DNA from: Thaumarchaeota archaeon 13_1_20CM_2_39_20
Lineage (GTDB): Archaea > Thermoproteota > Nitrososphaeria > Nitrososphaerales > Nitrosopumilaceae
Assembly (NCBI GenBank): GCA_001920395.1
Contig: MNJS01000010.1
Span: 1 to 36,076, forward strand
Length of the DNA: 36,076 bases
Direction of reading: 5' to 3'
In this document: one piece after another, positions 19,144 to 32,787 of the stretch
How positions within the stretch are numbered: position 1 is the stretch's first letter
Layout: the number at the start of each line of letters is the position of its first letter
Made by a program: the position numbers and the translations under genes
The notes under the pieces: generated by a model
What the model was told of the DNA's origin: nothing
Database searches by the model: none
The model's input: only the letters and a program-made list of their open reading frames with translations

Positions 19144-20328
19144 ATGACAAAGAAAATTTATTATATAGATGCGTTCACACGCGCTTCACACAATATATTT
19201 CTGTGTATGCAGGATTTGATAACAGAGACCAAAAGAGATTTTAAGATCTTTTTTCTTGGACCTGATGAAAAATTCTCATATTTCACTTCAAATTGGAAGG
19301 TGGAAAACGCCATACAGATCTGGACAAAGGGTCATTATGTCAGAAAAATTTATGGCTACATAAAAAAGAACAAGCCAGATATTATTCAATTTGGTTTTGA
19401 GTTAAGAACATTTGGAACATTAAAGTCTGCCATAAAGTTCCCTATTTTACTATATTTAATAAAAAACTTGAATATCAAGACAGTTATTACAATGCATGCC
19501 ATTCTTGTTTTCAGGGAGAATTCTAAATGGGTTGTATTAGGTGACTCTCCTATGAAGATACCGCATGGCATATTGGTAATCCTAGTGAAGGTTTTCATCA
19601 AGTCCATTTGCAGGCTTAGCAGTAAAATTGTAGTCGCAACTGAAGCAGGCCGGGAAGGATTGAACGAATTTTATGGAGTTGACAAGCACAAAATTGAGGT
19701 GATACGGGAAGGATTCTCAGATACTCCTCGGGTAAATCTAGAGAAAAAGAAAAAATTTGTCACTCAATTCAAGGAAAAAAAAATCATCCTTTGTTTTGGA
19801 GTGATCACACCTAGGAAGGGATTGACAACTGTTATCAAAGCGTTTAGTAAGATTCATGAAAAATTGCCAGATCACATCCTGGTGATAGCAGGAAAGGCCA
19901 GTCCTGAATTTCAATATTATGAGAACATGCTTCATCAAATATCAAAGGATCTGAAACTGGATCAAAAAGTATTCTTCACAGGCTTTGTTGACAACGACGA
20001 AATTGAGATTATTTTTGACATGGCTCAAATGGCTCTATTCATGTACCTACCTTCAGCTGCTGGTTCTGGCGCTATACATTTTGCCGTTCAACATGGCATA
20101 CCTGTAATAGTGAGTAGAGTCGATTCCTTTACCGAGGTTTTAAACGCTCAGGAAGCTATGTTTGTAGAACCTGAGAACAAAGATCAGTTAGGGGAGGCGA
20201 TCCTTAAACTTGCAAGTGATGAGAAACTAAGAAATTCCCTTCAGCAGAGATTAAAGGCCACAAGCAATCGAACTTGGAGAATCGTGGCAGAGGAATATCT
20301 CACACTTTATGAAAAAGTAGCGGCCTAA
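19144..20328 (+). CDS. Glycosyltransferase family 4
   Basis: A 394-residue GT-B glycosyltransferase. The N-terminal domain has KKIYYIDAFTRASHN and PDIIQFGFELRTFGT, plus a hydrophobic stretch around residues 140-160 (ILVILVKVFIKSICRL). Donor-domain landmarks are SSKIVVATEAGREGL, VIREGFSDT, ILCFGVITPRKGLTTVI, ILVIAGKA, VFFTGFVDNDEI and LPSAAGSGAIHFAVQHGIPVIVS. The usual E-x7-E region reads S-A-A-G-S-G-A-I-H-F-A, so the first Glu of that motif is replaced, as in some GT4 subgroups. The start ATG fits a TATA-like tract 20-28 bp upstream. The gene ends two bases before a fragment of a methyltransferase gene in the same orientation, so it once probably preceded a complete methyltransferase gene. 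Substrates are unknown. Confidence 0.85.
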   Translation: MTKKIYYIDAFTRASHNIFLCMQDLITETKRDFKIFFLGPDEKFSYFTSNWKVENAIQIWTKGHYVRKIYGYIKKNKPDIIQFGFELRTFGTLKSAIKFPILLYLIKNLNIKTVITMHAILVFRENSKWVVLGDSPMKIPHGILVILVKVFIKSICRLSSKIVVATEAGREGLNEFYGVDKHKIEVIREGFSDTPRVNLEKKKKFVTQFKEKKIILCFGVITPRKGLTTVIKAFSKIHEKLPDHILVIAGKASPEFQYYENMLHQISKDLKLDQKVFFTGFVDNDEIEIIFDMAQMALFMYLPSAAGSGAIHFAVQHGIPVIVSRVDSFTEVLNAQEAMFVEPENKDQLGEAILKLASDEKLRNSLQQRLKATSNRTWRIVAEEYLTLYEKVAA

Positions 20329-20578: not shown

Positions 20579-21157
20579 TTAGATTTGTTTTAAATTTTGT
20601 AGTTTAGATTCTACTAAATCAACTAGTATATGACCTACCATAATATGAGATTCTTGTATGTTTTGTGTGTTGGAAGAAGGTATTTTTATGGCTAGGTCTA
20701 CCAGGGATACCATTTTTCCTCCACTTTTACCGGTCAATCCTATTGTAGTTATCTTATTTTTTTTTGCAAGTTTTAGTGCCTCAAGCACATTAGAAGAGTT
20801 TCCACTCGTGCTTATTGCAATAATCACATCATTTACTGATGCAAGTCCTTCCAGTTGTCTTGAAAAAATCTTTTTAAAACCAAAGTCATTACCCAAGGCA
20901 GTTAAGCTTGACGTATTAGTAGTAAGTGCAATAGCAGGTAAAGCTTTTCTTTTAATTCCATATTTTCCAATAAATTCTGCAGCAATATGTTGAGCATCTC
21001 CAGCACTACCTCCATTTCCAAGTAGGATTAATTTTCCTCCAGAACGAAATGATCGAGTAATAACATCAGCTACTTTTTCAATTAACAGTGCTTGTTCCTT
21101 TAGCTTTTCTTTAGTCCTAATACTTTGATTAATGTAATCAGTAATTTTGTTATTCAA
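20579..21157 (-). CDS. gmhA: Sedoheptulose-7-phosphate isomerase (phosphoheptose isomerase)
   Basis: A 192-residue cytoplasmic SIS-domain isomerase that converts sedoheptulose 7-phosphate to D-glycero-D-manno-heptose 7-phosphate, the first step of heptose activation. GGKLILLGNGGSAGDAQHIAAEFIGKY near residue 39 is the conserved phosphosugar/active-site segment with the catalytic His and Glu; NDVIIAISTSGNSSNVLEAL is the second SIS phosphate loop; and IQESHIMVGHILVD near residue 167 has the conserved Glu and His pair that binds metal and substrate. Size is normal (about 190). It is the last gene of the heptose operon: its TTG start (21157) overlaps the TGA of hddA as TTGA, so translation is coupled. 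All motif residues I can check are intact. Confidence 0.93.
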   Translation of the reverse strand: MNNKITDYINQSIRTKEKLKEQALLIEKVADVITRSFRSGGKLILLGNGGSAGDAQHIAAEFIGKYGIKRKALPAIALTTNTSSLTALGNDFGFKKIFSRQLEGLASVNDVIIAISTSGNSSNVLEALKLAKKNKITTIGLTGKSGGKMVSLVDLAIKIPSSNTQNIQESHIMVGHILVDLVESKLQNLKQI

Positions 21158-22185
21158 TATACAACCTTCTTGTCATGTAATACCCATGTTTGCAATCCTG
21201 ATTTATCAAAATTGAACTTTACTATAGTAGCATCAGTATTATCAATCACATGTGTAATTTGATGTCTTTTGTCTGGGTCACATACAAATAACATATGTCC
21301 TCCTCCTCCTGCACCCAATATTTTTCCTCCTAGTGCACCCGCTTTTTTCACCTTGTCGTAGATCTTGTCTATTTTGGGATTGCTTATACTTTTATCAATG
21401 CTTTTTTTATGTTTCCAATAAAGATCCAACATATGTCCTATCTCAGTCATTTTTCCTTTCAATAGGTACTCTTTGACATCATGAACCAAACTCTTGATTA
21501 CTTCCAAATGTTCAAGAGTTGATACATCCTTTCTTTCATATTGCTGTATTTGTTTTTTCAGAATATTTCCAGATAATCTAGTTTTCCCTGTGTCAACTAA
21601 AATCAAAGAGGCTAGCAGTTCATGTAGAATTTCAGATCTTAATCTAAGTGGATTAACGGTCACAGTTTTTTTAAATTCCATGAAATTAAATCCACCAAAA
21701 GCAGAAGCGTATTGATCCTGATAACCACCTTTGATTCCGACTATTTCTCGTTCAAGCTTTATAGCACGTTCCGCTATGTCATAAGTGCTCAAATTTTCGT
21801 TCAAATATTTTGCCATGCAGCCTATCAAGCTAACTGAAACTGCGGAAGAAGATCCTAAACCAGAACCTGGAGACGAATCAGCATGAATAATTATGTCAAT
21901 GTCCTCGTTTTTAAGACCGGCATGAACAATTGCTGCTTTGACAATTCCCATTTTCCCATCAATTTTTAAATCAGAAATACTTTTAAGTTTTTCAAGTAGA
22001 TTATAATCTTGCGAAATTACACGTATTCCTTTTTTTAAATTTTTTTTTATTGTAACATAAGCATATCTATCAATCGTAGTACTAATCACAGCGCCTCCAT
22101 AAAGTTCAGGATATGGAGGAACGTCAGTACCACCTCCTGCGAAACTAATTCTCAAGGGTGCTCTGCTACGGAAAATTTTCTCCAC
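21154..22185 (-). CDS. hddA: D-glycero-D-manno-heptose 7-phosphate kinase (GHMP kinase)
   Basis: A 343-residue GHMP-family kinase expected to phosphorylate heptose 7-phosphate at C1 to the alpha-1,7-bisphosphate. RSRAPLRISFAGGGTDVPPY is the family N-terminus of the HddA group, SSPGSGLGSSSAVSVSL is the ATP-binding glycine-rich loop, KGGYQDQYASAFGGFN is the substrate region, and KILGAGGGGHMLFV is the C-terminal GHMP motif. Similar kinases act on fucose (FKP), but the gmhA, gmhB and hddC neighbours decide for heptose. Start codon is GTG 22185; 15 bp separate it from the hddC stop. Its own stop overlaps the gmhA start by 4 bases. No defect is visible. Confidence 0.92.
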   Translation of the reverse strand: MEKIFRSRAPLRISFAGGGTDVPPYPELYGGAVISTTIDRYAYVTIKKNLKKGIRVISQDYNLLEKLKSISDLKIDGKMGIVKAAIVHAGLKNEDIDIIIHADSSPGSGLGSSSAVSVSLIGCMAKYLNENLSTYDIAERAIKLEREIVGIKGGYQDQYASAFGGFNFMEFKKTVTVNPLRLRSEILHELLASLILVDTGKTRLSGNILKKQIQQYERKDVSTLEHLEVIKSLVHDVKEYLLKGKMTEIGHMLDLYWKHKKSIDKSISNPKIDKIYDKVKKAGALGGKILGAGGGGHMLFVCDPDKRHQITHVIDNTDATIVKFNFDKSGLQTWVLHDKKVVY

Positions 22186-22200
22186 GAGTACTACACATAA

Positions 22201-22935
22201 TTAGCTGTTAAAATCTTTTTTAAAAAGCCATGAGCAGGATTTGATGTCCTCTTGAAATCTTGTGAAATCTTCTGGAATGCCTATATCAATAAAGTAACCA
22301 GTTGATTTGAATCCAAAAAACCCATTTTTGGATAACAAAATAGAGAATAATTCTTTTTCTAGAGAAAATTTTGTTGGAAATGCTTCCCATTCAATAAAGT
22401 TTTTCTCAATCAGGTATATTCCTGCATTAATAAAGGAATTAGAAAGATCATGTTTTTTTTCAGAAAATGATATTATGCTATCAGTATTATCGGTAAGCAC
22501 AATACCATATCTTGAATTATTTACGACTTTAGCAAGAACCATAGATACATTTGCCTTTTTTTCTTTATGAAAATTCATAAATGTGTCATATGATAAATTA
22601 CAAATTGTATCGCCATTTAAGACAACAAAGTTGTTTTCTAACAAGTGCAACACATTTTTAATGGCGCCGCCTGTTCCTAGCTGTTCTTTTTCTACCGAGT
22701 ATGTTATATTAGCAGATAGAACTCTGCCATCTCCAAAATATTCTGATATATGTTCATGCTTATAGCCAGTGCATATAATAAAATTGGTTAATCCTTGACT
22801 CATCAGGAATTTAATTTGATATTCTAAAAATGGTTTTCCCATGATTAATGCCATACATTTCGGTCTATCAGAAATAATTGAACGCAATCTTGTTCCATAA
22901 CCACCAGCTAAAATTACAACTTGCATACCAATCAT
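22201..22935 (-). CDS. hddC: D-glycero-alpha-D-manno-heptose 1-phosphate guanylyltransferase
   Basis: A 244-residue nucleotidyltransferase of the sugar-1-phosphate type. VVILAGGYGTRLRSI with DRPKCM is the nucleotide-binding signature (G-x-G-T-R-L...PK), GKPFLEYQIKFL follows as in the HddC/RmlA group, VVLNGDTICNLSY contains the metal-binding GD, and FINAGIYLIEK and GYFIDIGIPEDFTRFQED are the sugar-binding and C-terminal parts. It should make GDP-heptose from heptose 1-phosphate and GTP; the guanylyl specificity is inferred from operon context, because UTP- or dTTP-using relatives share these motifs. The ATG at 22935 overlaps the gmhB stop (ATGA); a second in-frame ATG at 22926 (MQVVILAGG) starts right at the fold and is equally possible. 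Confidence 0.88.
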   Translation of the reverse strand: MIGMQVVILAGGYGTRLRSIISDRPKCMALIMGKPFLEYQIKFLMSQGLTNFIICTGYKHEHISEYFGDGRVLSANITYSVEKEQLGTGGAIKNVLHLLENNFVVLNGDTICNLSYDTFMNFHKEKKANVSMVLAKVVNNSRYGIVLTDNTDSIISFSEKKHDLSNSFINAGIYLIEKNFIEWEAFPTKFSLEKELFSILLSKNGFFGFKSTGYFIDIGIPEDFTRFQEDIKSCSWLFKKDFNS

Positions 22936-23465
22936 GTAGAATTATTCAAGATTTCTGATATGACGTCTTTGAGACTAGAGTTGGTTTGTATCTTAATTGT
23001 TTTACATCCAATTCTTTCACCTGCAAGCACATCAGTTACATCATTACCAATAACCCACGAATTTTTTATATTGACATAAAACTCATCTATTGCATTTTTG
23101 TAAAGTCCAATCTCAGGTTTCCTACATGAACAACTATCTTCAGGTTTATGAGGACAGTAGTATATGCCATCAATCTGAAAACCATTTTCAGAGAATATTT
23201 TTTGCATTTTTTGGTGTATTAAATGAAGATTTTCATGTGTAGATAATCCTCTTCCTATCATTGATTGATTTGTAACTACAATTAGTTTGAAACCCTTGTC
23301 TACAAGAAACTTTAACCAAAATGCGACATCAGGTATAATTTGGAACTCATCTGGTGTTTTTACATAATCTTTTCGTTCAAAATTAATCACTCCATCTCGG
23401 TCCAAAAATACTACTTTTACTTTAGTACCATCATATTTCGAACTAAAAGATATGAGATCTCTCAT
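22932..23465 (-). CDS. gmhB: D-glycero-D-manno-heptose 1,7-bisphosphate 7-phosphatase
   Basis: A 177-residue HAD-superfamily phosphatase that removes the C7 phosphate from heptose 1,7-bisphosphate. VVFLDRDGVIN near residue 17 holds the DxD nucleophile and acid; VVTNQSMIGRGLS is motif II with Thr; CPHKPEDSCSCRKP is the GmhB zinc-binding loop (Cys-x-His ... Cys-x-Cys) followed by the catalytic Arg-Lys; and WVIGNDVTDVLAGERIGC is motif IV with two Asp residues. Family length is about 175-190. Because HddA and HddC are partners, the alpha-anomer product is expected. The ATG at 23465 overlaps the stop of the truncated GT4 frame upstream (ATGA), and its stop overlaps hddC, so the operon is fully coupled. 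Confidence 0.93.
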   Translation of the reverse strand: MRDLISFSSKYDGTKVKVVFLDRDGVINFERKDYVKTPDEFQIIPDVAFWLKFLVDKGFKLIVVTNQSMIGRGLSTHENLHLIHQKMQKIFSENGFQIDGIYYCPHKPEDSCSCRKPEIGLYKNAIDEFYVNIKNSWVIGNDVTDVLAGERIGCKTIKIQTNSSLKDVISEILNNST

Positions 23466-23905
23466 TTTTCTAAAATAGTTTTAAAAATTGTCTTGAATAT
23501 TTCGCGCGAGATTTCACGTGAATAATGAGCTTCTGCAAAGTCTTTCATATTTTTAGAGTACTTCTCCCAAGGATCCACATAACCTATTAAAATACAGTTT
23601 TTGGTTTCTTGACAAAGTTTTGCCAATTTGCTAGGAATATTACTTCCCAATACATAGGATTTTACTTCAGGTATTTTTCGTCGAATTAAAGGAAAAATAT
23701 TGTTGATGAAATATTCTACAGCATCAACGTGTGGCTTATGACCAAATCCTCCGATGAAAACAATATCTTTTCTTTTGCCAAAGGGTTTTGATTCTCCCTC
23801 AAGGGAATACGAAGTCTGTGATAGGTCACTCTTCAAACATTCCAATAAAAAATGCTTTGGTGTATTTCTTACCCTTACTACAAATGATACAAACCAGGTA
23901 TCCAT
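23462..23905 (-). pseudogene. Internally deleted GT4 glycosyltransferase remnant
   Basis: A 147-codon open frame with the pieces of a GT4 enzyme but not the whole. Residues about 48-112 match the start of the donor domain: RKDIVFIGGFGHKPHVDAVEY, FPLIRRKIPEVKSYVLGSN, NCILIGYVD. The next piece, WEKYSKNMKDFAEAHYSREIS, is the usual extreme C-terminal segment. In intact relatives these two are separated by about 100 residues including the E-x7-E catalytic region (APLRYGAG..KI..AM), which is missing here. The acceptor domain upstream of residue 40 is also missing or unrecognisable. An in-frame internal deletion therefore joined the two ends without breaking the reading frame. It may still serve as the first translated member of the heptose operon, since its stop overlaps gmhB. 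Confidence 0.7.
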
Positions 23906-23932: not shown

Positions 23933-24778
23933 TTATGCGTATCCTTTTCGCAAAGCTCTGCCAATGCTAAACAGAACTATCGACATCAAAATGAGCAGTA
24001 TTCCTATTAAGACAGCACCCATGGAAACAAGTGTCCATGGAATAGAAAAGTATCTTGTCTGATTGAAAAGTGATATCACTACAATAGAAAAAGCTATTCC
24101 TACGATAGTCAAACTAACACCTGGAAGTCCAAGATATCTTAGAGGACGTCTGAGCACGACTTGCTCTAATAGGGAATTGACAACATCGGCAGAATGAGAA
24201 ACGTGGTTCTTGGTAGAAGTCTTTTCTCCGGTATCGTATAGAACTGTGACCTTTTCTTGTACGATTCTCAATCCTTTGCGTGATGCATCCATGAGGATCT
24301 CCGCATCTACGCCAAACTGATCTGATTCAAAGGTGATAAGTTCTGTTGCCTTATGTGAATAAGCTCTGAACCCGCTCTGAGTATCCCGAAACGGTAACTC
24401 AGATGCCATATTAGTTATCTTATCTAAAATCTTCATTCCAATTTTTCTATATGCCGGAATTTCATTATCTTTCTCAAACCCATAGCCTATTACTACATCA
24501 GCCTTCCCGTCTAAGATCGGTTTGACAATTTTATCTATCTCTTGAGGGAGGAATGGGCCATCACCGTCTATTGTCACTATCACATCTGCTTTCAGATCTT
24601 TTGCAACATTGAAAAGAGATTTCAATGCAGCTCCTTTACCTCTGTTTTTAGCGTGACTAATTACAGTGGCGCCACCTCTTTTTGCCTCTGTTGTAGTATC
24701 ATCGATGGAACCATCATCGCAAACAATGACTTCATCGGAATACTTGAGGCACTCCTCAACTAATCCACAAACCCTCAT
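23933..24778 (-). CDS. Family 2 glycosyltransferase (DPM-like), N-terminally eroded paralogue
   Basis: A family 2 glycosyltransferase of the dolichol/polyprenyl-phosphate sugar synthase type with two C-terminal membrane segments (LTIVGIAFSIVVISLF and VSMGAVLIGILLILMSIVLF). It closely resembles the complete protein at 26801-27709. The ATG at 24778 begins at RVCGLVEEC, which lies well inside the paralogue's residues 24-30, so the first beta strand (ILVCIPAYN) is missing from the called product. In frame upstream one still reads KIITHIP (about 24802-24822), the counterpart of RILVCIP, followed by KRLCFC where AYN should be, but there is no start codon. Other conserved spots differ as well: DGDGP for DGDGQ, and GYGF for GNRF. 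I consider it a degrading copy and probably inactive; it sits 27 bp upstream of the deleted GT4. Confidence 0.7.
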   Translation of the reverse strand: MRVCGLVEECLKYSDEVIVCDDGSIDDTTTEAKRGGATVISHAKNRGKGAALKSLFNVAKDLKADVIVTIDGDGPFLPQEIDKIVKPILDGKADVVIGYGFEKDNEIPAYRKIGMKILDKITNMASELPFRDTQSGFRAYSHKATELITFESDQFGVDAEILMDASRKGLRIVQEKVTVLYDTGEKTSTKNHVSHSADVVNSLLEQVVLRRPLRYLGLPGVSLTIVGIAFSIVVISLFNQTRYFSIPWTLVSMGAVLIGILLILMSIVLFSIGRALRKGYA

Positions 24779-26800: not shown

Positions 26801-27709
26801 TTATGAATATCCTCTTCGTAAAGCTCTACCAATGCTAAACAAAACTACAGACATCAAGACTAGTATGATTCCAATTACGAGAGAGCCTAAAGCTACAAGT
26901 GTTGAGGGAATAGAAAAGTACCTGGTTTGATTGAACAGAACTATTACGATAATTGAGTAAGCTATTCCTATGGCTGACAGAGTAAGACCAGGAATTCCAA
27001 GATAAGTTAATGGACGCCTGACCGCAATCAGTTCTATGAGTGAAACTACAACGTCTGTCGTATGGGAAACGGGGTTCTTGGTAGATGTTTCCTGTCCGGT
27101 GTTATTGTACAGAACTGTGACCTTTTCCTCGATAATTCTCAAACCTTTTCTTGATGCATCAATGAGGATCTCTGCATCTGAGCCAAATCCATCTGTGTGG
27201 AAGCTAATCAGCTCTACTGCTTTAGCTGAATAAGCTCTGAATCCACTTTGTGTATCCTGAAACGGTAGATCCGATGCCATACTAGTCATCTTATCTAAAA
27301 ACTTGTTTCCGAATTTTCTATAGGAGGGTATTTTGTTCTCTCCATTAAATCTATTTCCTATCACTACGTCAGCTCTTCCATCTAAAATTGGTTTAATAAT
27401 TTTATCAATCTCTTGAGGAAGGAATTGGCCATCACCGTCTATTGTCACTATCACATCTGCTTTCAGATCTTTTGCATAAGTGAAGAGAGATCTCATTGCA
27501 GCTCCTTTACCTTTATTTTTTGGATGTCTTACTACGGTGGCACCACCTCTCTTGGCTTCTGTTTCGGTGTCATCAGCTGAGCCATCATCGCAAACAACGA
27601 CATCATATGAGTACTTGCAACATTCCTCTACCAATTTTCGGATGACTTTTCCTACATTATATGCTGGTATGCAAACTAAGATTCTTTTACCACTTTGTTC
27701 ACTTTTCAT
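26801..27709 (-). CDS. Family 2 glycosyltransferase, polyprenyl-phosphate sugar synthase (DPM-like)
   Basis: A 302-residue membrane-associated GT2 that would transfer a sugar from a nucleotide sugar to a polyprenyl (dolichol) phosphate. RILVCIPAYNVGKVIRKLVEEC is the first Rossmann-like strand; VVVCDDGSADDT is the nucleotide-binding Asp motif; VTIDGDGQFLPQEID carries the metal-binding DxD; FQDTQSGFRAYS matches the QxGFR acceptor region; and SDAEILIDASRKGLRIIEEKVTV follows. Two hydrophobic segments at residues about 232-255 and 265-292 anchor the C-terminus. All core motifs are intact, unlike the paralogue at 23933. It starts 9 bp after the stop of the PGI/PMI pseudogene on the same strand, so it was probably co-transcribed with that gene while the latter was functional, and may still use its promoter (TATA-like at 28755-28764). 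Confidence 0.9.
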   Translation of the reverse strand: MKSEQSGKRILVCIPAYNVGKVIRKLVEECCKYSYDVVVCDDGSADDTETEAKRGGATVVRHPKNKGKGAAMRSLFTYAKDLKADVIVTIDGDGQFLPQEIDKIIKPILDGRADVVIGNRFNGENKIPSYRKFGNKFLDKMTSMASDLPFQDTQSGFRAYSAKAVELISFHTDGFGSDAEILIDASRKGLRIIEEKVTVLYNNTGQETSTKNPVSHTTDVVVSLIELIAVRRPLTYLGIPGLTLSAIGIAYSIIVIVLFNQTRYFSIPSTLVALGSLVIGIILVLMSVVLFSIGRALRRGYS

Positions 27710-30960: not shown

Positions 30961-31782
30961 ATGAAAGCGTACGGTTTAGTTCTATTGTGTGTGTTTTTGC
31001 TCTGCATTCCTACGTATAGCGAGGCACAGACAACAAGACCTTCAAACATCGTATCATCTGAACAATATAATCAATTATTGGAGAAGGAATTTTTCAAAAC
31101 TGGAAATACTTTTTTTGACCAAAACAAGTACGAAAATGCAATTACTTTTTATGACAGGGCATTAAAAATTAATTCGACTGATACCAACGTAGTATACAAC
31201 AAAGCCCTTGCACTTGAAAGTTTAGGGAAATACGATGAGGCAATAAGATACTATGACATGGTTTTAGTTATTAATCCAAATGATACCGATACATTAAACA
31301 ACAAAGGTCTTTCACTTGAAAGTCTAGGAAAACATTATGATGCTATAACATACTATGATAAGGTTTTAGCTATTAATTCAAATGATACTAATGCGTTATA
31401 CAACAAAGGCGTATCACTTGATAGTTTAGGCAAACATGACCAAGCAATATCGTATTATAAACAGGTTTTGGCTGTCGATCCCGGTGATACCAGTGCGTTA
31501 AACAAATTGAATTTTGCATTTAACATCATAGATAAAAATCAATTAACCATATTCCAACAATTCGATAAAACATCAGTCATCTTATTTGGGATCATAATTT
31601 CGCTTGTATGTTCTATTATTATAATTAGTCTGGTAACAAGAAAAGCTCAGAAGGCCGTGAGGTCAAAAGTTTCACAAATGAGTGTTCCAACCAAGGAAGA
31701 AGAAAAAAGTACAAGACCAGAAATTCAGGACACGAAACCAAGACCAGAAGAAATCAAAGACGATGAATGGGGTGGAGTTTGA
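30961..31782 (+). CDS. Exported, membrane-anchored TPR protein (copy 1)
   Basis: A 273-residue protein. Residues 1-22 are a signal peptide (YGLVLLCVFLLCIPTYSEAQ); about residues 40-180 hold four tetratricopeptide repeats with the usual spacing (YENAITFYDRALKINSTD; YDEAIRYYDMVLVINPND; YDAITYYDKVLAINSND; DQAISYYKQVLAVDPGD); residues about 200-225 are a membrane segment (VILFGIIISLVCSIIIISLV); and the charged tail ends KDDEWGGV. The TPRs would lie outside the cell and bind a partner protein, with a short cytoplasmic tail. It is followed 183 bp downstream by a near-identical copy. A perfect 5-3-5 palindrome (GTTTA, three bases, TAAAC) sits 32 bp before the ATG in both genes. Confidence 0.85.
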   Translation: MKAYGLVLLCVFLLCIPTYSEAQTTRPSNIVSSEQYNQLLEKEFFKTGNTFFDQNKYENAITFYDRALKINSTDTNVVYNKALALESLGKYDEAIRYYDMVLVINPNDTDTLNNKGLSLESLGKHYDAITYYDKVLAINSNDTNALYNKGVSLDSLGKHDQAISYYKQVLAVDPGDTSALNKLNFAFNIIDKNQLTIFQQFDKTSVILFGIIISLVCSIIIISLVTRKAQKAVRSKVSQMSVPTKEEEKSTRPEIQDTKPRPEEIKDDEWGGV

Positions 31783-31934: not shown

Positions 31935-31965
31935 ACTTTTCAATTCCTTATTCCTTTCTTTGTTT

Positions 31966-32787
31966 ATGAAATTGTATGGTTTAGTTCTATTGTATCTGTT
32001 TTTGTTGTTCATTCCTACATATAGTCAGGCACAAACAACAGCACCTACAAACAGCACTTCATCTGAACAATATCGTCAACTACTGGAGAAACAGTTCTTC
32101 AAAACTGGAAATAGCCTCTTTGACCAAGGCAATTATACGGACGCAATAACGTATTATGACAGAGCGTTACAAATCAATTCAACTGATATCAACGTACTTT
32201 ACAACAAAGCTCTTGCACTTGATAATCTAGACAGACTTGGTGAAGCAATAACATACTATGATAAGGTCTTGGCCATTAGTCCACGAGATACCGATTCATT
32301 AAACAACAAAGGTCTTGTACTAGACAAACTAGGTAAACATGACGAGGCAATAACATACTATGATAAGGTTTTAGCTATCAATCCCACTGATACTGATGCA
32401 TTATACAACAAAGGCGTATCACTTGATAGTTTAGGCAAACATGACCAAGCAATATCATACTATAAGGAGGTTTTAGCTATCAATCCCGGTGATACCAGTG
32501 CGTTAAACAAATTGAATCTTACTTTCAACAACGCAAATACCAAAGAGATACAAGGAATTCAAAAAATAGATCAAACTTCCCTCGTTATCGTCGGGATCAT
32601 AATTTCACTTGTAGGTGTGATTATTGTACTCAATCTAATTGCAAAAAAAACTCGTAAGGGCTTGACCCAAAACGTTTTAGAAACCACTGTTCCTGTGAAA
32701 GAAGAAGAAAAAAATGCGAGACCAGAAATTCAAGACAAGAAACCAGAACCAGAAAAAATCAAAGAAGATGAATGGAAGGGAATTTGA
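31966..32787 (+). CDS. Exported, membrane-anchored TPR protein (copy 2)
   Basis: Tandem duplicate of the gene at 30961, 273 residues from ATG 31966 (an in-frame TTG at 31960 adds MF but lies in the promoter-like part and does not match copy 1). Layout is the same: signal peptide ending in YSQAQ, four TPR units (TDAITYYDRALQINSTD; GEAITYYDKVLAISPRD; DEAITYYDKVLAINPTD; DQAISYYKEVLAINPGD), membrane segment (VIVGIIISLVGVIIVLNLI), charged tail ending KEDEWKGI. The last repeat shares a 56-base exact match with copy 1 (32401-32456 and 31396-31451), while the second repeat is more divergent. The conserved tail E-W-x-G-(V/I) hints at a common interaction at the C-terminus. The promoter palindrome and about 100 bp of upstream sequence are duplicated as well. 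Confidence 0.85.
   Translation: MKLYGLVLLYLFLLFIPTYSQAQTTAPTNSTSSEQYRQLLEKQFFKTGNSLFDQGNYTDAITYYDRALQINSTDINVLYNKALALDNLDRLGEAITYYDKVLAISPRDTDSLNNKGLVLDKLGKHDEAITYYDKVLAINPTDTDALYNKGVSLDSLGKHDQAISYYKEVLAINPGDTSALNKLNLTFNNANTKEIQGIQKIDQTSLVIVGIIISLVGVIIVLNLIAKKTRKGLTQNVLETTVPVKEEEKNARPEIQDKKPEPEKIKEDEWKGI

What the first reader, a model, noticed from the sequence alone, without database searches (positions are those of the whole stretch)
20579..23465. Complete four-gene GDP-heptose pathway operon in an archaeal genome
gmhB, hddC, hddA and gmhA lie in one minus-strand operon, with ATGA/TTGA overlaps at three junctions and a 15-bp gap at the fourth. All motifs needed for the four steps from sedoheptulose 7-phosphate to GDP-D-glycero-alpha-D-manno-heptose are present and intact. 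This pathway is best known from bacterial LPS, capsule and S-layer glycans. In an archaeon it predicts a heptose in the surface glycan, possibly on the S-layer. It is compact and fully intact while its surroundings decay, so it looks selected and perhaps laterally acquired.
Basis: partly seen in the sequence, partly recalled or inferred. Interest (0 to 1): 0.75.

Follow-up and report, generated by a model that had tools for sequence, protein, structure and literature searches.

The report
Heptose-sugar operon in ammonia-oxidising archaeon
An ammonia-oxidising archaeon carries four adjacent genes that should make GDP-activated heptose, a seven-carbon surface sugar best known from bacteria; relatives carry parts of the same set, and one of the four enzymes here has an unusual change in its metal-binding site.

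Summary
The four ORFs, the order gmhB-hddC-hddA-gmhA, the overlaps and the 15-bp gap are real. Each protein's best solved relatives are heptose-pathway enzymes, not fucose or rhamnose enzymes. Trees place HddC with operon-linked bacterial HddCs. HddA lies far from fucokinase, but outside the clade of solved heptokinases. The genome encodes transketolase and transaldolase, so sedoheptulose 7-phosphate should be available.

Two corrections matter. 'All motifs intact' is wrong: GmhB has Asn141 where E. coli GmhB has the HAD motif Asp136, which is Asp in 46 of 47 aligned homologues and in all AOA relatives checked. The ORF just upstream is a remnant of a glycosyltransferase that is intact at the same place in a relative (G196), so decay reaches the operon edge. 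The operon is also not a lone bacterial import: gmhB-hddA-gmhA recurs in the same order in another genus of the family without hddC, and the pathway is patchy (gmhA in 22 of 250 family genomes).

Archaeal heptose gene clusters were already reported (Thermoplasmata 'Iplasma', Methanococcus, Tang et al. 2024). I call it a new member of a known kind: a GDP-heptose pathway in an ammonia-oxidising archaeon. S-layer use is untested.

The parts
20579..21157 (-). gmhA: sedoheptulose-7-phosphate isomerase, 192 aa, TTG start; Zn ligands H57, E61, Q168, H176 kept
   Evidence: SIS_2 6e-28; TIGR00441 gmhA 194.7 bits, cut-off 209; best PDB 2xbl phosphoheptose isomerase 3e-52; Zn ligands as listed for gonococcal GmhA in PMC5387315; no mismatch at 23 conserved positions
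21154..22185 (-). hddA: GHMP-family heptose-7-phosphate 1-kinase, 343 aa, GTG start; R12 and D157 match WcbL catalytic R13/D163
   Evidence: NF049969 HddA 263.6 bits, cut-off 600, vs 125.7 fucokinase; PDB 3k85 1e-69, WcbL 4usm 7e-69, fucokinase 4.5e-25; PMC4691232
22201..22935 (-). hddC: heptose-1-phosphate guanylyltransferase-like nucleotidyltransferase, 244 aa
   Evidence: NF049965 HddC 191.6 bits, cut-off 300, vs 181.5 mannose-1-P guanylyltransferase; best PDB 5xhw/6jq8, '6-deoxy-D-mannoheptose pathway protein'; tree
22932..23465 (-). gmhB: HAD-IIIA heptose 1,7-bisphosphate 7-phosphatase, 177 aa; DRDG and CPH-CxCRKP kept, motif Asp replaced by Asn141 (codon 23045-23043)
   Evidence: NF006506 173 bits, cut-off 178; TIGR01656 above cut-off; PDB 4pnh 2e-29, HisB 1e-22; motif comparison
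23462..23905 (-). remnant of a glycosyltransferase gene; 75 aa align at 52% with residues 577-651 of the intact 761-aa GT2+GT4 protein next to gmhB in G196
   Evidence: tblastn; TIGR03087 partial match
23933..24778 (-). AglJ-like GT2, N-terminally shortened copy (73-77% DNA identity) of the gene at 26801-27709
   Evidence: TIGR04182 AglJ 129 bits; direct repeat
19144..20328 (+). GT4 glycosyltransferase next to gmhA, candidate user of the sugar (inference)
   Evidence: Glycos_transf_1 4e-24

Best explanation
[quoted passage not shown] GmhA isomerises S7P to heptose 7-P, HddA phosphorylates C1, GmhB removes the 7-phosphate and HddC adds GMP from GTP. The donor is most likely used by glycosyltransferases of the surrounding surface-glycan locus. 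It is an accessory pathway passed around among ammonia-oxidising archaea: a gmhB-hddA-gmhA core, with hddC joined to it in this organism. Shown here: homology, gene order, most active-site residues, presence of S7P-making enzymes, relatives' clusters. Inferred: substrates, the GDP product, the acceptor glycan, and that GmhB still works despite Asn141.
For: Best solved relatives of all four are heptose-pathway proteins. The same four genes sit together in many bacterial loci, and hddA-gmhA-gmhB in Methanomassiliicoccales. Same-order gmhB-hddA-gmhA in G196 and G211, and all four within 8.5 kb in the single-contig G006 genome. HddC groups with operon-linked HddCs rather than the archaeon's other nucleotidyltransferases. 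Transketolase (two subunits) and transaldolase genes on contig C4. Four related archaeal clusters have a transaldolase gene close by (L018, L019, L020, L023). WcbL catalytic Arg/Asp and GmhA zinc ligands conserved.
Against: No protein reaches its NCBIfam equivalog cut-off. HddC beats the mannose-1-P guanylyltransferase model by only 10 bits. Archaeal HddAs lie outside the clade holding the solved heptokinases. GmhB lost a near-invariant motif Asp and no second GmhB is found in the 61%-complete genome. The adjacent glycosyltransferase is a remnant. No dedicated heptosyltransferase was identified.
Confidence: 0.77

Rival explanations
1. The pathway is present but failing: after loss of the neighbouring glycosyltransferase, GmhB has taken an inactivating Asp-to-Asn change and the operon is an early pseudo-pathway.
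For: Asn at the HAD motif Asp; glycosyltransferase remnant at the first junction; no second GmhB found.
Against: All four ORFs are open, with strongly low third-position GC as in coding sequence; every other conserved GmhB position is kept; one other GmhB in a hddA-gmhB-gmhA locus (L061) also has Asn; a MAG base error is possible.
Confidence: 0.15
2. The four enzymes make a different GDP- or NDP-sugar; the module is heptose-like but the kinase and nucleotidyltransferase have other substrates.
For: Sub-cut-off profile scores; archaeal HddAs outside the solved-heptokinase clade; some Thermoplasmata loci have hddA without gmhA or gmhB nearby.
Against: Physical linkage to GmhA and GmhB in window, G196, G211 and Methanomassiliicoccales; transaldolase near related clusters; catalytic residues as in WcbL.
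Confidence: 0.08

Closest known systems
[quoted passage not shown]
   Same: All four enzyme families and the same inferred reaction order (PMC10680097)
   Different: Archaeal host; GmhB motif Asp replaced; no GDP-heptose-modifying dehydratase or reductase found among the ORFs annotated in the window
Heptose gene cluster of the Thermoplasmata archaeon Iplasma (PMC3750248)
   Same: Full heptose pathway cluster in an archaeon, proposed for S-layer glycosylation
   Different: Different archaeal phylum; annotated there as ADP-heptose
Archaeal NDP-heptose enzymes of Tang et al. 2024 (summarised in PMC11461863)
   Same: Heptose biosynthesis in archaea, shown in vitro
   Different: That work started from heptose nucleotidyltransferases of the HENase type (ADP/CDP/UDP-beta-heptose), not from the HddC GDP-alpha route
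gmhB-hddA-gmhA modules of G196 and G211 (same family, other genus)
   Same: Same order and closest sequences (HddA 55-60%, GmhA 57-61%)
   Different: No hddC between them; GmhB has Asp; intact glycosyltransferase upstream in G196

Membership tests
GDP-heptose pathway | GmhA: SIS isomerase with the Zn site His/Glu/Gln/His | tested here: met
   H57, E61, Q168, H176; best PDB match phosphoheptose isomerase
GDP-heptose pathway | HddA: GHMP kinase nearer to heptokinases than to fucokinase, with catalytic Arg/Asp | tested here: met
   235-238 bits vs 92 for fucokinase; R12 and D157 kept; but outside the solved-heptokinase clade
GDP-heptose pathway | GmhB: HAD motifs DXDX(T/V), S/T, (G/S)DXX(N/T)D | tested here: not met
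   First and second motifs kept; third reads GNDVTD, Asn for the motif's first Asp
GDP-heptose pathway | HddC groups with heptose-1-P guanylyltransferases | tested here: met
   Groups with operon-linked HddCs and 5xhw, SH-aLRT 86, apart from GMPPs and the archaeon's other nucleotidyltransferases; score margin over the mannose-1-P model small
GDP-heptose pathway | NCBIfam equivalog cut-offs reached | tested here: not met
   All four below their equivalog cut-offs
GDP-heptose pathway | S7P supply | tested here: met
   Transketolase subunits and transaldolase on C4
GDP-heptose pathway | Enzyme activity and GDP-heptose product | not testable with these tools
   Needs biochemistry
S-layer heptose glycosylation | Heptose on S-layer, and an oligosaccharyltransferase | tested here: inconclusive
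   No STT3/AglB found, but the genome is only 61% complete; no sugar data

The most novel reading that the evidence does not exclude
Ammonia-oxidising archaea keep a mobile heptose toolkit: one gmhA lineage feeds GDP-heptose (this operon), and another feeds a NeuB/KDN-phosphatase module that would make a ten-carbon CMP-ulosonic acid not found in the papers searched.
Probability: 0.15. Interest if true: 0.7.

Novelty: new member of a known kind. Interest (0 to 1): 0.33.

Why it matters
If true, surface glycans of ammonia-oxidising archaea, among the most abundant archaea, can carry manno-heptose, a sugar treated as typical of bacterial envelopes. The patchy distribution and cross-genus relationships suggest that glycan chemistry in these archaea is exchanged gene set by gene set, as in bacterial O-antigen and capsule loci, possibly under virus pressure (inference). 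The GmhB Asp-to-Asn change gives a simple biochemical test of whether this copy still works.

Tried and rejected
Fucose or rhamnose assignment: rejected on scores and trees. HisB-type histidinol phosphatase for gmhB: lower score than GmhB structures, and the operon context argues against it. Recent bacterial import of the whole operon: not supported; the nearest relatives are other ammonia-oxidising archaea, although hddC may have joined separately. Flank comparison within the genus to find an empty site: only scattered 64-67% matches, so the locus is too variable. Sigma-70 and terminator scan: no more than chance, and not suited to archaea. STT3 search: negative but inconclusive. No structure prediction was run, because the question about GmhB is catalytic and a fold model would not settle it.

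Full report
The observation. The four ORFs, their order and their junctions are as described. Upstream ORF/gmhB and gmhB/hddC share ATGA, hddA/gmhA share TTGA, and hddC/hddA are 15 bp apart. The window is a whole contig (C37) of a 1.06-Mb, 61%-complete genome. The organism is an ammonia-oxidising archaeon: archaeal AmoA scores 350 bits. The family is probably Nitrosopumilaceae; that name is my inference, as handles carry none.

What the proteins are. Pfam and NCBIfam give SIS isomerase/GmhA, GHMP kinase/HddA, nucleotidyltransferase/HddC and HAD-IIIA/GmhB as best models, although none reaches its equivalog cut-off. In the PDB the best matches are phosphoheptose isomerase (3e-52), HddA/WcbL heptokinases (about 1e-69; fucokinase 4.5e-25), a 6-deoxy-mannoheptose pathway nucleotidyltransferase (1e-38) and heptose bisphosphate phosphatases (2e-29; HisB 1e-22). 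GmhA keeps the zinc ligands reported in PMC5387315. HddA keeps the equivalents of WcbL R13 and D163 (PMC4691232).

A broken claim. Among 47 aligned GmhB relatives the HAD motif Asp (E. coli Asp136) is Asp in 46; the window has Asn141 (AAT, 23045-23043) and only L061 shares Asn. The AOA relatives G006, G018, G019, G196, G211, G205 and G112 all have Asp. PMC8204981 lists (G/S)DXX(N/T)D as one of the three defining motifs. That this Asp binds the catalytic Mg2+ is established HAD knowledge, not tested here. So the pathway may be weakened here, or this may be a tolerated change or a MAG base error.

The decayed neighbour. ORF 23462-23905 matches residues 577-651 of a 761-aa glycosyltransferase of G196 (52% identity), which is intact directly upstream of gmhB there. 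After residue 651 the window ORF jumps to a sequence resembling the G196 protein's last 30 residues (read by eye). It is therefore most likely a remnant of the module's own glycosyltransferase.

Relatives. In the window's genus, 7 of 37 genomes have an HddA at E<=1e-40. In its family, 22 of 250 genomes have a GmhA at E<=1e-30. The same gmhB-hddA-gmhA order occurs in G196 and G211 of another genus, without hddC between; the single-contig G006 genome has all four within 8.5 kb. The window's HddA and GmhA group with those other-genus copies at least as closely as with same-genus copies, which indicates exchange within the family. HddC groups with G006 and with operon-linked bacterial HddCs including 5xhw (SH-aLRT 90 and 86), away from the archaeon's other nucleotidyltransferases and GMPPs. 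Thermoplasmata and Methanomassiliicoccales also carry HddA, some with GmhA and GmhB. The solved heptokinases fall in a bacterial clade (SH-aLRT 100) that excludes all archaeal HddAs, so substrate identity for the archaeal kinases rests on linkage and residues, not on orthology.

Substrate supply. The genome has a transketolase N-subunit (in one ORF with a ribulose-phosphate epimerase-like domain), a transketolase pyrimidine-binding domain and a transaldolase within about 3.3 kb on contig C4. Four related archaeal clusters of a second type carry a transaldolase gene close to gmhA-gmhB-hddA.

Prior art. Iplasma was reported to encode a full heptose cluster tentatively linked to its S-layer (PMC3750248). 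Methanococcus glycan loci contain heptose genes (PMC12667266). Tang et al. 2024 showed archaeal enzymes making NDP-heptoses (PMC11461863). The GDP route's reactions are established in C. jejuni (PMC10680097). I found no paper on a GDP-heptose operon in ammonia-oxidising archaea, but the library holds open-licence papers only.

Verdict. A real heptose-biosynthesis operon in an ammonia-oxidising archaeon, a new member of a known kind, moderately interesting for archaeal surface chemistry. The S-layer claim remains a guess.

Noticed in passing
L134-L140, L142-L148 (e.g. L134:5277-7207): In 14 of 20 further family loci found by GmhA, gmhA sits in a locus with a NeuB-family synthase and a KDN-9-P/KdsC-like HAD phosphatase, in L134 also with a cytidylyltransferase. 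By analogy with the KDN pathway this could make a ten-carbon CMP-ulosonic acid from heptose 7-P and PEP; no paper in the library names such a sugar.
   Followed up: partly
L018, L019, L020, L023: A second, divergent archaeal hddA-gmhA-gmhB type carries a transaldolase gene close by, suggesting on-site S7P supply; G018 has both types.
   Followed up: partly
L104 (G000:C4:16767-17555): Transketolase N-terminal subunit appears fused in one 555-aa ORF with a ribulose-phosphate 3-epimerase-like domain.
   Followed up: no
23933-24778 and 26801-27709: Two AglJ-like GT2 genes, 73-77% identical in DNA; the first is shortened at its N-terminus and altered in conserved stretches.
   Followed up: partly
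L029, L030, L032, L034, L037 and other Thermoplasmata loci: HddA-like kinases with no gmhA or gmhB within about 6 kb; their substrate is open.
   Followed up: no
30961-31782 and 31960-32787: Two neighbouring TPR-repeat proteins of similar length.
   Followed up: no
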